Below are positions 4,302 through 11,571 of a stretch of DNA of 12,227 bases, piece by piece (within the stretch, counting starts at the first letter, position 1; each line of letters opens with the position of its first letter). The notes under the pieces are model-generated. The model was not told the DNA's origin. It did no database searches and was given only the letters and a program-made list of their open reading frames with translations. A program made the translations under genes and the position numbers. The DNA is from Casimicrobiaceae bacterium (GTDB taxonomy: Bacteria > Pseudomonadota > Gammaproteobacteria > Burkholderiales > Casimicrobiaceae). Location: NCBI GenBank assembly GCA_955652025.1, contig CATPAO010000254.1, positions 1 to 12,227 of the forward strand, read 5' to 3'.

Positions 4302-6119
4302 CTATCGCCGCCGAAAGCGGTAGATCGCGAGCTCGCCACGGAGATTGGGCAGCGCTTTGACGCGCCGGCCGGCCGCGAGCACCACGCGGTCCAGCACCGT
4401 GCAATCGTGCGTCGCGAGGAAGGCGTCGAAGTCGGCGACAGTGCACAAGTGAATGTTCGGCGTGTCGTACCACTGATACGGCAGCGATTCGGACACCGGC
4501 ATCCGTCCGCGCACAATTTGCGCGCGATGCGACCAGTGGCCGAAATTGGGAAACGTCACGATCGCCTCGCGCCCGACGCGCAGCATTTCGCCGACGATCA
4601 CCTCGATCCGGCGCATCGCCTGCAGCGTCTGCGACAGGATCACGCAATCAAACGACGCGTCGTCGAATCCGGCGAGCCCGCGCTCCAAGTCGCTCTGGAT
4701 GACATCGATGCCATTTTCGAGGCTCGCCAGCATACCGGCGTCGGCGATCTCGATGCCATAGCCGCCCGCGCCGTTCGCTCCGCGCAGATAGGCGAGCAGG
4801 CTGCCGTCGCCGCAGCCCAGATCGAGCACGCGCGCATCCTTCGCGATCCAGCCCGCGATCGTCGCGTAGTCGGCGCGCGCAACGGCGTTCGCCGACGCGG
4901 GCCGCGCCGCACGCTGCGGTTTCGGCGACTCCGGCGCGATCTCCGCGGCGACGCGATCGAAATACGCCCCGACGACCGCGTGATATTGCGGATCGTCTAG
5001 CAGAAACGCGTCGTGGCCGTGCGGCGCGACGATCTCCGCGTACGAGACGCGCCGCCGGTCGTGCACCAGCGCCTTCACGATCTCGCGCGAGCGCGCCGCC
5101 GGGAATCGCCAATCAGTGGTGAATGCGACGACCAGGAATTCGCAGCGCGCCGCTGCCAGCGCCTTGGCGAGATCGCCGCCATATTCGCTCGCCGGGTCGA
5201 AATAATCGAGTGCCTTGGTGATGCGGAGATACGTGTTCGCGTCGTAGTATTCGGCGAACTTTTCGCCTTGGTAGCGGAGATACGATTCGATCTGGAACTC
5301 GGGCGCGAACGAGAAATTTTTTCCTTCGCGGAGCTGCCGGCCGAACTTCGCTTCCATCTGCTCGTCGGACAGATACGTGATGTGGCCGATCATCCGCGCG
5401 ACGCGCAGTCCGCGCCGCGGCTTGACGCCATGCGCTTCGAACTGGCCGTCGAAAAATTCGGGATCGGTGAGGATCGCCTGACGCGCGACCTCGTTGAAGG
5501 CGATGTTCTCGGCCGACAGGTTCGGCGCCGCCGCGATCACCAGCGCGTGGCGGATGCGATCGGGATAGCGCGTCGCCCACGCGAGCGCCTGCATGCCGCC
5601 GAGACTGCCGCCCATCACGCCGGCCCAGCGCTCGATGCCGAGCTGATCGGCGAGCCTGGCCTGCGATTCGACCCAGTCCTCGACGGTGACCATCGGAAAA
5701 TTTGCGCCGTATGGCTTGCGGCTGACCGGATCAGTCGACAGGGGGCCGGTCGAGCCGAAACAGCTGCCGAGGTTGTTCACGCCGACCACGAAGAAACGGT
5801 CGGTATCGAGCGGCCGGCCCGGACCGATCATGTTGTCCCACCAGCCGACGTTGTCCGGCTCGGAGGCGTAATAGCCCGCGACGTGATGCGATGCGTTGAG
5901 CGCGTGGCAGATCAGGACGGCGTTGCTGCGATCGGCGTTGAGCGTCCCGTACGTTTCGTACGCGATCTCATAACCCACGAGCGCGCGGCCGCAGGCGAGC
6001 GGCAGCGGCACGTCGAAGCGCGCGAGCTGCGGCGTGGCGGCGCCGACGCTTCGACCGGCGGTGTGTCGCGGTTCCGCCGCCGCGTCGGTGCCGCCGGTGG
6101 TGGCGGAAAACGAAGGCAT
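4302..6119 (-). CDS. metXW: MetX-MetW fusion: homoserine O-acyltransferase joined to MetW
   Basis: Single 605-residue polypeptide. Residues about 30-395 are MetX, an alpha/beta-hydrolase that transfers an acyl group from acyl-CoA to homoserine, the first committed step of methionine synthesis. Its catalytic triad is Ser172 in GGSLGG, Asp336 in TTDWRF and His369 in [12 protein letters not shown]. In many betaproteobacteria MetX uses succinyl-CoA rather than acetyl-CoA; I cannot decide the donor here. Residues about 416-605 are MetW, a methyltransferase-like protein needed with MetX in Pseudomonas, with motif [15 protein letters not shown] (431-445), then [10 protein letters not shown] and the characteristic [13 protein letters not shown]. 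The linker, about 396-415, is rich in Ala, Pro and Arg. It has no ATG, GTG or TTG between the two domains, so MetW cannot start separately in this frame. Start at the ATG at 6119, downstream of a good promoter; no strong Shine-Dalgarno sequence is seen. The 88 bases after the stop hold no clear signal. Confidence 0.92.
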
Positions 6120-6168
6120 CGCGTCGATCAATGGCGCCCGCAAGTGGCTCAAATCGGCGCTATGTGTG

Positions 6169-6214: not shown

Positions 6215-7117
6215 TCACGCGGAGCGATGGACGCTGCCGTCGGGCCCAACGGCCAGATATGTCCATCGTTGCGCGTCCAGAAATGGGATCGCACACGCCT
6301 CCAGCAGCATCGCGACCGTCGCGCAACTTCCGGCGACGACGCACAGGGGCGCAACGACGCTGACCGATTGCCAGTGCGACACCGGCATGCCGGTTCGCGG
6401 ATCGATAAGATGGCAGTAGCGACGGCCATCGAGATCGAAATAGCGTTCGTAGTCGCCGCTGGTCGCCACCGCGCCGTCCGCGACTTCCATCACGGCAATC
6501 GCGCAATCGTCACGGCGCGGATCGCGGATGCCGATGCGCCATGGCGTGCCGTCCGCCTGCGTGCCGATTGCGCGCACGTCGCCGCCGAGATTGACGAGAC
6601 CATGCGCGATACCATGCTCGACGCAAATCGTCGCTGCGCGGTCGGCCGCATATTCCTTGCCGATGCCGCCCAGATCGATCTCCATGCCGCGCTCCGGCAG
6701 CCGGATCGCGCGGTCGTCCCATTCCACGCGTTGCCAACCGATCAATGCGCGCGCCTTTTCGATCGAAGCCGCGGAAGGGAGCCGCGCCGGCTTCGCCTTG
6801 AAGTCCCACACGCGACGCAGTACACCCGACGTTACGTCGAAACGGCCGTCGCTGAGGTCGAAGACCTGTTGCGCGTAGCGGAGCAACGCCGCGGTTTCGG
6901 CGTCGACCGCGACCGGCGCCGCTCCGGCCGCGCGATTGATTCGCGTCGTGACGCTGTCATCGCGATAGCGCGAATACTTCGCCTCGATCCGCAAGACGTC
7001 GGCGATCGCCGCGTCGGCGGCGCGTTGCGCTTCCGCGTGCGACGCCGCGAAAAGTTGCAGCTCGTGCTCGGCCGCCATCGCGCGAAATGCGAAACGAAAA
7101 GGCGCCGGCGCGGCCAT
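6215..7117 (-). CDS. apbE: ApbE-family FAD:protein FMN transferase
   Basis: Enzyme of 300 residues predicted to transfer FMN from FAD to Ser or Thr of a target protein. Family landmarks in order: F-R-A-M near residue 11, [12 protein letters not shown] (87-98), [12 protein letters not shown] (148-159), NLGGD (176-180), [11 protein letters not shown] (217-227), HLIDPRTG (236-243) and [11 protein letters not shown] (261-271). In many ApbE proteins the last motif reads A-D-A-L-A-T, whose Asp and Thr help bind Mg. Here Thr267 is kept, but the Asp position appears to be Gly263, which may mark a subfamily. No signal peptide or lipobox precedes the catalytic core, and no in-frame start exists upstream, so the enzyme appears cytosolic unless exported in another way. 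It starts 20 bases after the DUF3570 stop and is the last gene of the set, so the neighbours are its likely substrates. Confidence 0.92.
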
Positions 7118-7137
7118 CGCTCGAAGGACCGGATGTC

Positions 7138-8301
7138 TTAGAAAGTCTTCGCGATGCCCACGGAAATCCAGCGGGCCGAAAACGGCAGCAAATCGGCGCT
7201 GCCGCCCCCGCCCAAGCGCCAGCCCGCGCGCTGTTGATAGTAGCTGAACGCGAGATCGGCGCTCCAGCCGTCGGCGAATTGCTTGTCAATTCGCACCGAG
7301 GGCGTAAACGCGCCGAAAGCCGAAAGCCGGGTGTCGGCGGTGTACGGTTGTCCGAATTCGAGTCCGTTGCCGAATGGAGGACCGAAGTAGAAGTCCGCCG
7401 CGCTTTGCGTGTAGTAACGCAAGCTCGGCGTCACGGAGAACGCGTACGGCAGCGGCTGCGCCCACGCGACCTCGACGGCGTGCGACTGATCGCCGAACGA
7501 ATCATGGACGTAGCGATACGAGAGCCTGAGCGTCGCATCGAGCGAGGGCAGGTGCTGGTTCCACCGGGTGAGCCACGCGAGGACGCGTCGATGATCGGGC
7601 CGGACGTCGGAGAGTTTGTACGGATCGGAGTAATAGCCGTGGCCGGTCGAATAGGTGAGGTTCGACTGGACGATCGCATCGGCATTCACCGCCTGCGTCA
7701 CGCCGAACAGGAAATCGAGCGTTTCCCGCCGCCCGTCGTCGATCGTGCGATCGTGCGGATGGATGCGATCGGCGGCCGCGGACACGCCGAACGCGTACGT
7801 GCGATTCTTGTCGTCGGTCCACGTGCGCGCCTCGACGGTGATCGCGCGCGAAATGTAGTCGCGCTCGTGCGAGTACGCGCCGCCGACGCCCAATGCGAAG
7901 CGGTCGAAATAGCGGGTGAGCTTCGCGTCCCCTGCCGTTCGGTAGTCGGTGATGCCGATCCCCGACGCGCCGGACAGCGTGTTGAACGCGAGCGGCGACG
8001 CGCCCGACATGCTGTCGTAGACGAGCGTTCCCTCGAGCGATAGCGAATCGGAAAGCGGTCGCAGCACGTACAGAGACGGACTTCGCACCGTCATCCGGTC
8101 GGCGCCCGGCTGCCAGTCGCGATAATCAAAATATTTGAGCGCGATGACGCTCTGATCGGGCGCCGTTTGCGCGATCACGTTCGCGGGCAGGACGCCGGGG
8201 AGGGCCAGCGCGGCCGCGAGCAAGGCGCGAGCGGGCGCAGGCGCTGTGATGGCCTGCGGTCGTGGCGCCGCGTCCTCCCCCTCAGTTTCAGTTGCAGCCA
8301 C
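7138..8301 (-). CDS. DUF3570 family outer-membrane beta-barrel protein
   Basis: Protein of 387 residues assigned to DUF3570 from overall pattern and context. After a hydrophobic export segment (about 21-45, ALLAAALALPGV and onward) the chain alternates polar and aromatic residues in strand-like stretches and ends in I-A-K-T-F, with the C-terminal Phe expected of an outer-membrane barrel. Near the N-terminus it holds D-S-M-S-G-A-S (96-102) and N-T-L-S-G-A-S (107-113), which match or nearly match the ApbE flavinylation consensus. The start is a GTG at 8301 inside the end of the DUF4266 gene, a 14-base overlap. A start further downstream would remove the export segment, since the next Met is residue 70. 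The N-region before the hydrophobic stretch is long and has only two Arg, so the signal peptide is not textbook. It lies between the DUF4266 lipoprotein and ApbE genes; its function is unproven. Confidence 0.82.
   Translation of the reverse strand: MAATETEGEDAAPRPQAITAPAPARALLAAALALPGVLPANVIAQTAPDQSVIALKYFDYRDWQPGADRMTVRSPSLYVLRPLSDSLSLEGTLVYDSMSGASPLAFNTLSGASGIGITDYRTAGDAKLTRYFDRFALGVGGAYSHERDYISRAITVEARTWTDDKNRTYAFGVSAAADRIHPHDRTIDDGRRETLDFLFGVTQAVNADAIVQSNLTYSTGHGYYSDPYKLSDVRPDHRRVLAWLTRWNQHLPSLDATLRLSYRYVHDSFGDQSHAVEVAWAQPLPYAFSVTPSLRYYTQSAADFYFGPPFGNGLEFGQPYTADTRLSAFGAFTPSVRIDKQFADGWSADLAFSYYQQRAGWRLGGGGSADLLPFSARWISVGIAKTF
7996..8016 (-). other. candidate ApbE flavinylation motif in the DUF3570 protein
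   Basis: These bases encode D-S-M-S-G-A-S, residues 96-102 of the barrel protein. It fits the ApbE target consensus D-x-x-[ST]-G-A-[ST], in which FMN is linked to the last Ser or Thr, here Ser102. A second copy-like stretch, N-T-L-S-G-A-S at 7963-7983, has Asn instead of Asp. The match is read directly; modification is inferred from the adjacent apbE gene. Confidence 0.55.
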
Positions 8302-8524
8302 AGCCGCCTCCGCCGACGCCGTAGCCGCCGCCCGCGCCCTCCTTGCTGGTGTAGATGTGCTGGGTCGCCTTCGCGTCGGGCGAGTCGGCGTCGAATTGCA
8401 TCTCGCGCTTGGCGAGCTCGCCTTTTTCCCATGGCTTGGGCGGATCGAACGTCGCGCACCCGGCGGCGACGAGCAACATCGTCGGCATCGCCAGCCGCCA
8501 TACGATTCGACCCAACCTGCTCAC
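8288..8524 (-). CDS. DUF4266 small lipoprotein with Gly-rich CGCN tail
   Basis: Protein of 78 residues. A short basic N-terminus (R4, R7, R10) and a hydrophobic stretch lead to the lipobox V-A-A-G-C23, so Cys23 should be lipidated and the protein anchored in the envelope. The mature part has F-D-P-P-K-P-W-E-K-G-E-L-A, M-Q-F-D-A-D and H-I-Y-T-S-K-E-G, which fit DUF4266. It ends in a glycine-rich tail with Cys75 and Cys77 followed by a terminal Asn. The GTG start overlaps the TlpA stop by four bases (GTGA at 8521-8524), and the 3' end overlaps the DUF3570 start by 14 bases, so the three are translationally coupled. The function is unknown. The paired cysteines beside a thioredoxin-like partner suggest thiol redox or cofactor or metal binding, but this is inference. 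An automated caller could miss it because of its size and GTG start. Confidence 0.82.
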   Translation of the reverse strand: MSRLGRIVWRLAMPTMLLVAAGCATFDPPKPWEKGELAKREMQFDADSPDAKATQHIYTSKEGAGGGYGVGGGGCGCN

Positions 8525-9024
8525 CGACGCGCTTCCGTAAGCGTGCGGATCCGCTCCTCAAGCGCTGCGCGCCGCTCGTCGCGAAAGCCGACCTCGATCG
8601 CCACGACCTTGCCGTTCTTATCGATCAGGTAGGAGTTCGGCATTCCCTTGACCGCGTACGCGGTGGGCGTCGCGCCTTGCGCGTCGTACAGCACGGTGAA
8701 CTCCGCCGGCGTCTCAGCGAGAAAACGCTCTGCGTCGGCGCGCGTCTTGTCGACGTTGACCGCGACGATCGCGAGCCCCTTGCCGCCGTAGAGACGCTTC
8801 ATCGCGTTCATCCACGGAAACGAGCGGCGGCAAGGGCCACACCACGATGCCCAGAAATCGACGTAGACCACGTTGCCGCGGAGTTGATCGAGCGTGATCG
8901 TTTCGCCGGCGGCGGTTGGCAGCGCAAACGCAGGCGCCGCGTCGCCGGCGCCGACCGCTGCAGCGTCGTACGCGAAGCACAACGCGGCCGCGGCGAACGC
9001 GGCACGGAGCGCATGGGTCGTCAT
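8521..9024 (-). CDS. exported TlpA/ResA-like thioredoxin-fold protein
   Basis: Protein of 167 residues. A hydrophobic N-terminal segment (about 6-23, Ala-rich) looks like a signal peptide, so it should act in the periplasm. The AhpC/TSA-thioredoxin fold follows: APAFALPTAAGETITLDQLR (30-49), VVYVDFWASWCGPCRRSFPW with active-site Cys62 and Cys65, and the cis-proline loop GMPNSYLID (Pro129). W-C-G-P-C is the usual reducing type, as in TlpA, ResA and CcmG. It starts the four-gene set with DUF4266, DUF3570 and apbE; its TGA overlaps the DUF4266 GTG. A likely role is to keep the cysteines of the DUF4266 tail, or another envelope protein, reduced. The start is placed at ATG 9024, just before the signal peptide. 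An ATG at 9036 would add four residues (M-L-E-I), and an upstream in-frame stretch to 9108 looks non-coding. No clear Shine-Dalgarno sequence discriminates between them. Confidence 0.88.
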   Translation of the reverse strand: MTTHALRAAFAAAALCFAYDAAAVGAGDAAPAFALPTAAGETITLDQLRGNVVYVDFWASWCGPCRRSFPWMNAMKRLYGGKGLAIVAVNVDKTRADAERFLAETPAEFTVLYDAQGATPTAYAVKGMPNSYLIDKNGKVVAIEVGFRDERRAALEERIRTLTEARR

Positions 9025-9122
9025 GATTTCGAGCATCGCGGGGCGCAACGTCCACTCCCGGTCAGGTAAACACCGATTCCCCACCGCCTGTTCCACGCAA
9101 GGCGACAACGGGAAGAGACCTC

Positions 9123-10881: not shown

Positions 10882-11151
10882 TTACGCGTGTGCGCTCAGT
10901 CCGTCGCCGAGAAGCCGCAACATCGCCGCCATCGCCGCGGACTCGTCGGGACCGTCGGTCTCGACCTTGATCATGCTGCCAAAGCCGCCCGCGAGAAGCA
11001 TCACGGCGACGATGTTGCGCGCGCTGGCCCTGCGCCGTCCGCAGGTAAGCGCAACGTTGCAGCGGAACCGCGAGGCAAGCTGAACGATGCGTGCGCAGGC
11101 CCGCGCGTGCAGGCCCAGCCGATTGGTGATTTCGATTTCGCGTGTCTGCAT
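10882..11151 (-). CDS. second HPr paralogue with Asn at position 46
   Basis: HPr-like phosphocarrier of 89 residues from the chosen start. The active-site segment NRLGLHARA has His15, so it can in principle accept phosphate from EI. Aligned by eye without gaps to the neighbouring HPr, 41 of 89 positions are identical. Differences cluster at regulatory sites: the Ser46 region K-S-I-M-G is R-N-I-V-A, so the residue phosphorylated by HPr kinase in other HPr proteins is Asn. The second strand region is more basic and has cysteines at 19, 31 and 37 that the first HPr lacks. The start at 11151 (M-Q-T-R-E) aligns exactly with the first HPr. An ATG at 11166 would add M-S-D-H-V. Neither has a clear Shine-Dalgarno sequence. 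It follows a terminator-like hairpin and sits 22 bases before ptsI, so this copy, rather than the canonical one, is the immediate partner of EI in expression. Confidence 0.9.
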   Translation of the reverse strand: MQTREIEITNRLGLHARACARIVQLASRFRCNVALTCGRRRASARNIVAVMLLAGGFGSMIKVETDGPDESAAMAAMLRLLGDGLSAHA

Positions 11152-11173
11152 GACGTGATCGCTCATCGTGAGG

Positions 11174-11301: not shown

Positions 11302-11571
11302 CTACGCGCCCTCGCCGAAACAGTCGCCGATCAGCGCGCACAGCGCGTCCATCGCCTGCGTCTCGTCGGGTCCGTCGATTTCCAGCGTGACCTTCGCGCC
11401 CTTGCCGGCCGCCAGCATCATCACGCCCATGATGCTTTTCGCGTTCACCTTGCGGCCGCTCCGCGAGATCTGCACGTCGCTCTGGAACTTGGCGGCCAGT
11501 TGCGTGAGCTTGGCCGAAGCGCGCGCGTGAAGCCCCAGCTTGTTGATGATTTCAACCTCGCGCTGGTGCAT
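11302..11571 (-). CDS. ptsH: HPr phosphocarrier protein, canonical copy
   Basis: Cytosolic phosphocarrier of 89 residues that receives phosphate from EI and passes it to EIIA proteins. The segment NKLGLHARASAKLTQLA carries the active-site His15, and AKSIMGVMMLAAGKG carries Ser46, the site used by HPr kinase/phosphorylase in bacteria that have it. E-I-D-G-P-D-E-T-Q-A-M (64-74) is the usual C-terminal pattern, so no family residue appears to be missing. It starts inside the end of the EIIA gene, a 20-base overlap, with no strong Shine-Dalgarno sequence, which suggests translational coupling to EIIA. It is followed by a 135-base spacer with a terminator-like hairpin. Such a spacer within this set is unusual, as HPr is commonly followed closely by EI. 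Expression may therefore favour EIIA and HPr over the downstream genes. Confidence 0.95.
   Translation of the reverse strand: MHQREVEIINKLGLHARASAKLTQLAAKFQSDVQISRSGRKVNAKSIMGVMMLAAGKGAKVTLEIDGPDETQAMDALCALIGDCFGEGA

What the first reader, a model, noticed from the sequence alone, without database searches (positions are those of the whole stretch)
7963..8016. ApbE flavinylation consensus inside the DUF3570 barrel protein
The barrel protein two genes before the end of an apbE-containing set has D-S-M-S-G-A-S (residues 96-102), an exact match to D-x-x-[ST]-G-A-[ST], and N-T-L-S-G-A-S eleven residues later. ApbE links FMN to the last Ser or Thr of such a motif. No classical FMN-bind domain protein is visible nearby, so the barrel itself is the best candidate substrate. 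A covalently flavinylated outer-membrane barrel would place FMN at or near the cell surface, which would be an unusual redox architecture.
Basis: partly seen in the sequence, partly recalled or inferred. Interest (0 to 1): 0.75.

Follow-up and report, generated by a model that had tools for sequence, protein, structure and literature searches.

The report
Flavin-carrying outer-membrane barrel with cytoplasmic ApbE
A bacterial outer-membrane barrel protein has two sites where a partner enzyme is expected to attach a flavin (already shown for a green-sulfur-bacterium relative); here the sites lie in a loop predicted on the cell-surface side and the enzyme has no visible export signal, so the flavin is probably attached before the protein leaves the cytoplasm.

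Summary
In detail: the DUF3570 protein (window 7138-8301, minus) has DSMSGAS (96-102) and NTLSGAS (107-113). That ApbE flavinylates a DUF3570 at two such motifs is already published for Chlorobium luteolum (PMC8238504), and the gene set (thioredoxin-like, DUF4266, DUF3570, ApbE) is the published one: a new member of a known kind. Motif 1 is in 80 of 80 related loci, a second [ST]GA[ST] in 62 of 80.

I add: (1) AlphaFold gives a 16-strand outer-membrane-type barrel (pLDDT 92.3; fold matches). Both serines lie in a flexible loop that is extracellular by normal topology; a Chlorobaculum homologue agrees. (2) The linked ApbE shows no export signal: 2 of 94 by a hydropathy test, against 28 of 30 control ApbEs and 89 of 94 DUF3570 partners. 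(3) These ApbEs form their own branch. A divergent DUF3570 group, in contrast, is paired with exported ApbEs.

Best reading: FMN is attached in the cytoplasm, then carried through Sec and BAM to the outer face. The order of events is inferred, not shown.

The parts
7138..8301 (-). DUF3570 protein, 387 aa from GTG; predicted 16-strand outer-membrane barrel, presumed ApbE substrate
8167..8301 (-). signal-peptide region of DUF3570 (about residues 1-45); cleavage site assumed after AQ
   Evidence: hydropathy 2.26; no signal-peptide predictor was available
7996..8016 (-). flavinylation motif 1, DSMSGAS, acceptor Ser102
   Evidence: strict motif in 80 of 80 loci
7963..7983 (-). flavinylation motif 2, NTLSGAS, acceptor Ser113
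   Evidence: second [ST]GA[ST] within 40 residues in 62 of 80 loci
7951..8004 (-). loop between strands 3 and 4 (mature residues 55-72) that holds both acceptor serines; extracellular side by canonical topology
6215..7117 (-). ApbE (FAD:protein FMN transferase), 300 aa, no visible signal peptide
   Evidence: PF02424 E 1.4e-81; N-terminus; hydropathy 0.16; solved ApbE relatives
8288..8524 (-). DUF4266 small lipoprotein-like protein ending GGGGCGCN (CxC)
   Evidence: PF14086 E 5.5e-21; CxC at the end in 110 of 110 loci with a DUF4266 hit, of 111
8521..9108 (-). TlpA/ResA-type thioredoxin-like protein with CGPC
   Evidence: PF08534 E 5.2e-26

Best explanation
This is a DUF3570/ApbE/DUF4266/thioredoxin-like electron-transfer set. 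The DUF3570 protein is a 16-strand outer-membrane barrel whose loop between strands 3 and 4 carries FMN on Ser102 and probably Ser113, put there by the neighbouring ApbE. Because this ApbE has no visible export signal while its substrate has one, FMN is most likely attached in the cytoplasm to the unfolded precursor; the flavinylated chain then goes through Sec and is assembled by BAM, which places the flavins at the extracellular rim or in the upper lumen of the barrel. There they would exchange electrons with the periplasmic thioredoxin-like protein through the CxC tail of the DUF4266 lipoprotein. Shown by others for a relative: flavinylation at both motifs by the cognate ApbE. Computed here: motif conservation, barrel, loop side, lack of an ApbE signal. 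Inferred: order of events, electron path, physiological acceptor.
For: Published flavinylation of C. luteolum DUF3570 by its cognate ApbE in E. coli, both motifs; most of the protein was in the lysed-cell pellet (PMC8238504). Motif 1 in 80 of 80 and site 2 in 62 of 80 loci, although the loop is of low confidence in the model. An ApbE in the same fetched locus in 72 of 80. One DUF3570, one ApbE, no FMN_bind and no DUF2271 match in the held, 67% complete genome. Barrel models of the window protein and of a Chlorobaculum homologue with both sites in the same loop; end-to-end matches to outer-membrane barrels. Of the 45 most conserved positions 38 are on the outer half or outer loops, against 195 of 342 residues. 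Signal test: linked ApbEs 2 of 94, control ApbEs 28 of 30, DUF3570 partners 89 of 94; in 19 of 94 the open frame leaves fewer than 20 residues before the domain. One branch (support 0.959) separates 92 linked ApbEs from 29 controls and 6 type B ApbEs. A review passage says the open SecY lumen may be as large as 2.4 nm (PMC6028853).
Against: No experiment on this protein. Eight of 80 related loci carry the motif but no ApbE was found in the fetched DNA. Conservation over all strand residues shows no bias to the outer half (p 0.55). The loop is of low confidence, so lumen versus outside cannot be decided. The signal test is a simple hydropathy rule, and at the laxer cut-off of 1.6 it flags 9 of 94 linked ApbEs. 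The control ApbEs are the best Pfam scorers and so lean to the classical type. A divergent DUF3570 group (type B) is paired with exported ApbEs, directly next to them in two genomes, so export of the enzyme is compatible with a DUF3570 partner. The paper's wording (signal-peptide-truncated apbE for one pair, 'a similar cloning strategy' for the Chlorobium pair) may mean that the C. luteolum ApbE has a signal peptide; I did not have its sequence. I know of no published ApbE-flavinylated protein that passes Sec after modification.
Confidence: 0.57

Rival explanations
1. The barrel is flavinylated in the periplasm: this ApbE is exported by a route not visible in its sequence, or a second, exported ApbE acts on it.
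For: Most described ApbEs are secreted (PMC12052999 passages). The held genome is 67% complete, so a second ApbE may be missing. Type B DUF3570s sit in clusters with, and in two genomes directly beside, ApbEs that have a signal-like N-terminus.
Against: No signal-like stretch in 92 of 94 linked ApbEs of the window's type, and fewer than 20 residues before the domain in 19; they form a separate branch.
Confidence: 0.3
2. The motif is conserved for folding or for binding a partner in the barrel loop, and the protein carries no FMN here.
For: Eight of 80 loci keep the motif with no ApbE in the fetched DNA; type B proteins keep the Asp, Ala and Ser, often with S or N in place of Gly.
Against: Published flavinylation of a DUF3570 at both motifs; an ApbE in the same locus in 72 of 80; the reviewed ApbE motif is D-x-x-[S/T]-G-A-[S/T].
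Confidence: 0.06
3. The flavins face the periplasm or sit low in the lumen, so the system is purely periplasmic and not surface-exposed.
For: The partners (thioredoxin-like, DUF4266) would face the periplasm; the loop position is not resolved.
Against: The loop joins an odd to an even strand, both chain ends lie on the other side, and the loops of its side are mostly the long ones; the Chlorobaculum model agrees.
Confidence: 0.17

Closest known systems
Chlorobium luteolum DUF3570 with its cognate ApbE (PMC8238504)
   Same: DUF3570 with two [ST]GA[ST] motifs and a cognate apbE; the paper's clusters also hold thioredoxin-like and DUF4266 genes
   Different: Here the organism is probably a betaproteobacterium (judged from named relatives) and nothing was tested; the cited main text does not use the word barrel
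DsbD-type flavinylation clusters (PMC8238504, section 12 passage)
   Different: No DsbD recognised in the window; one DsbD_TM match elsewhere in the genome; the thioredoxin-like protein matches Redoxin/AhpC-TSA and Thioredoxin_8, with no PF13899 listed
FMN_bind proteins (NqrC, RnfG, PplA; details partly recalled)
   Same: FMN by phosphoester on the last Ser/Thr of D-x-x-[S/T]-G-A-[S/T]
   Different: Small soluble domain, usually with an exported ApbE, not a barrel
Cytosolic ApbE and fumarate reductase of Klebsiella pneumoniae (PMC12052999 passage)
   Same: ApbE without a signal peptide
   Different: There the substrate is a soluble enzyme made by a cytoplasmic transferase; here the substrate has a signal peptide and is a predicted outer-membrane protein
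Porin-cytochrome outer-membrane conduits such as MtrCAB (recalled, not tested)
   Same: A barrel linked to redox cofactors, possible electron passage across the outer membrane
   Different: Flavin and thiol cofactors proposed in place of haem

Membership tests
DUF3570 (PF12094) | match above the family cut-off | tested here: met
   217.5 bits against 25
ApbE substrates | D-x-x-[S/T]-G-A-[S/T] | tested here: met
   DSMSGAS; the second site NTLSGAS lacks the Asp
ApbE substrates | covalent FMN on the last Ser/Thr | not testable with these tools
   needs protein chemistry; shown for a relative
Published ApbE/DUF3570/thioredoxin-like/DUF4266 cluster | the four genes side by side | tested here: met
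   window 6215-9108
DsbD flavinylation system | DsbD in the cluster | tested here: not met
   the one DsbD_TM match of the genome is on another contig; the paper counts 316 such clusters without DsbD
ApbE (PF02424) | match above cut-off with core motifs | tested here: met
   274.4 bits against 25.6; GGDVR, SGDYERYF and HLIDPRTG align with solved ApbEs; catalytic residues were not checked one by one
Periplasmic ApbE | signal or lipoprotein signal peptide | tested here: not met
   N-terminus and hydropathy test
Outer-membrane beta-barrel | even-stranded barrel with signal peptide and C-terminal Phe | tested here: met

The most novel reading that the evidence does not exclude
A dedicated branch of cytoplasmic ApbEs flavinylates the precursor of an outer-membrane barrel before export, so that a covalent redox cofactor is carried through Sec and BAM to the outer face, where two flavins together with the CxC tail of DUF4266 form a haem-free electron route across the outer membrane.
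Probability: 0.28. Interest if true: 0.82.

Novelty: new member of a known kind. Interest (0 to 1): 0.5.

Why it matters
If right, it answers how a flavin comes to sit on the outer side of an outer-membrane protein without a flavin exporter: it is loaded in the cytoplasm. It would also be an outer-membrane redox device built on flavin and thiols in place of haem. It makes the open function of DUF3570 and DUF4266 directly testable, because the order of flavinylation and export can be read from a precursor blocked in export, and the two DUF3570 groups (signal-less against exported ApbE) offer a natural comparison.

Tried and rejected
Simple 'motif only where apbE is adjacent' test: in 31 places fetched from 28 other genomes of a phylum sample, [ST]GA[ST] was in 20 of 21 with an ApbE within about 1.1 kb and in 3 of 9 without one; one more place lay at a contig end (Fisher p 0.0009). 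I reject it as evidence. The nine look like one divergent group (type B), so the rows are not independent; in the 80-locus set the motif stays in all 8 loci with no ApbE found; and two type B genes met later among the controls have S-S-A-S with an ApbE directly beside them.

Outer-half conservation over all strand residues: no difference (p 0.55); only the 45 most conserved positions show it (38 of 45; 31 of 38 without the motif loop).

Sequence search of solved structures with the DUF3570 profile: no match up to E 1, so the barrel rests on the model and on fold comparison.

Literature: DUF3570 and DUF4266 were each found in one held paper, the same one. Searches for flavinylation with outer membrane (one search listed 30 of 37 papers), ApbE with flavinylation motif, with signal peptide and cytoplasmic, with beta-barrel and flavinylation with SecYEG gave listings in which I saw no title or start of abstract describing a flavinylated barrel or flavinylation before Sec export. 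Figures, supplements and most subscription journals were not seen. A 2024 paper and its preprint say in passing that flavinylation sites reflect localisation in the outer membrane too; the search for DUF3570 did not list them.

Classical FMN_bind or DUF2271 as the real substrate: no match in the held genome, which is incomplete.

Full report
What is there. Four genes on the minus strand, tightly packed: thioredoxin-like (8521-9108), DUF4266 (8288-8524), DUF3570 (7138-8301) and ApbE (6215-7117); Pfam matches. DUF4266 and DUF3570 overlap by 14 bases, and the VAAT start of DUF3570, common in its homologues, is the DUF4266 end CGCN-stop read in another frame.

More than chance. Shuffling gives the strict motif in 152 of 20000 and two or more [ST]GA[ST] in 51 of 20000. 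In the window protein and 19 chosen homologues of 62-98% identity the core residues of both motifs are invariant. In the 102-row alignment residue 102 is Ser or Thr in 102 rows and residue 113 in 101.

Already known. PMC8238504 (seen: abstract and outline, sections 6, 7, 26 and 27, passages of others) reports that C. luteolum DUF3570 is flavinylated by its cognate ApbE in E. coli and that both serines had to be replaced to abolish it. [quoted passage not shown] The core of the finding is therefore published. The words barrel and porin do not occur in that main text, and outer membrane occurs once, about TonB receptors.

The ApbE has no visible export signal. In the window the ApbE domain starts about 12 residues after the start codon (hydropathy 0.16). 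A hydropathy test over possible starts (cut-off 1.9) found a signal-like stretch in 2 of 94 linked ApbEs, in both apparently at the edge of the domain (L090, L101), and 9 of 94 at the laxer cut-off 1.6; in 28 of 30 control ApbEs of the same class; and in 89 of 94 of the partner DUF3570 proteins. The 94 are the loci with an ApbE hit among 112 (window, 31, 80), minus two type B loci (L057, L059); in each locus the best hit to the window ApbE was taken, which leans to the window's type, and in two of them (L132, L141) it lies 4-7 kb away. In 19 of 94 the frame leaves fewer than 20 residues before the domain. The controls are the 30 loci handed out from 96 genomes with ApbE, best Pfam scores first, which leans to the classical type; two of them (L156, L162) proved to lie beside type B DUF3570 and DUF4266 genes, both with a signal-like stretch. 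An ApbE tree puts 92 linked ApbEs on one side of one branch (0.959), with 29 controls and 6 type B ApbEs on the other; rows with too short an aligned stretch were dropped (2 linked, 1 control). An MGT-like motif at the domain start is in 30 of 30 controls and in 1 or 3 of 94 linked ApbEs, by the pattern used. The window ApbE aligns with solved ApbEs through the core motifs. Five Chlorobiaceae ApbEs in the set (L129, L132, L137, L141, L143) also start close to the domain; the C. luteolum ApbE itself was not seen.

Reading. A substrate with a signal peptide and an enzyme without one suggest attachment in the cytoplasm before export. The published co-expression fits: it used signal-peptide-truncated constructs with a similar strategy for the Chlorobium pair, and most of the DUF3570 was in the lysed-cell pellet, so ApbE can modify chains that were not exported. 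That same wording could also mean that the Chlorobium ApbE had a signal to remove, which would count against me. A review passage gives an open SecY lumen of up to 2.4 nm from substrates with rigid organic tails (PMC6028853), so passage of FMN is not excluded. Cytosolic ApbEs are known for soluble, non-exported substrates (PMC12052999 passages). Electron flow from the thioredoxin-like protein to the DUF4266 CxC (at the end of the protein in 110 of 110 loci with a hit) to FMN is inference; the donor may be the DsbD-like protein found elsewhere in the genome.

Type B. Nine of the 31 sampled DUF3570 genes form a divergent group with S-[SNG]-A-S or T-G-A-S-I-D-V at site 1, in larger clusters in the one examined by Pfam (L062). 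Six of nine have a classical-type ApbE on the same strand about 6-17 kb away; a hydrophobic N-terminal stretch is readable by eye in four of these six (L176-L179) and not in the other two (L057, L059). Two further type B genes (L156, L162; DSVSSAS, DSISSAS) have an exported-type ApbE directly after them. So the two DUF3570 groups appear to use two sorts of ApbE, the window's sort being signal-less. Whether S-S-A-S is flavinylated is unknown; a review says changes in the Gly and Ala of the motif lower but do not abolish flavinylation in one enzyme.

Verdict. Ordinary in that it is a new member of a published system; interesting in that the enzyme looks cytoplasmic and the flavin sites look surface-side, both directly testable.

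Noticed in passing
L052, L053, L057, L059-L064; L156, L162; L176-L179: A divergent DUF3570 group (type B) with S-[SNG]-A-S at the site is paired with exported-type ApbEs, and in L062 lies in a cluster with OMP_b-brl and SH3 proteins, a protein with a hydrazine-synthase-alpha middle domain and TPR proteins.
   Followed up: partly
window 8288-8301: The DUF4266 gene end overlaps the DUF3570 start by 14 bases; the common VAAT start of DUF3570 is the CGCN-stop tail in another frame, which suggests translational coupling.
   Followed up: partly
window 8288-8524: The CxC at the DUF4266 C-terminus (mostly after a glycine run, ending CGCN in the examples printed) is present in 110 of 110 loci with a DUF4266 hit.
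   Followed up: partly
window 4302-6158: MetX-like (alpha/beta hydrolase) and MetW domains are read in one open frame of at least 618 aa, a possible fusion.
   Followed up: no
window 10882-11166 and 11302-11571: Two HPr-like proteins side by side next to ptsI (from the translations, family by recall); the first has Asn where the second has Ser at the site expected for regulatory phosphorylation (position recalled).
   Followed up: no
L132, L140, L141: In these Chlorobiaceae loci ApbE and/or DUF4266 lie 1-7 kb from the DUF3570 match or were not found, which may mean several DUF3570 copies in a row.
   Followed up: no
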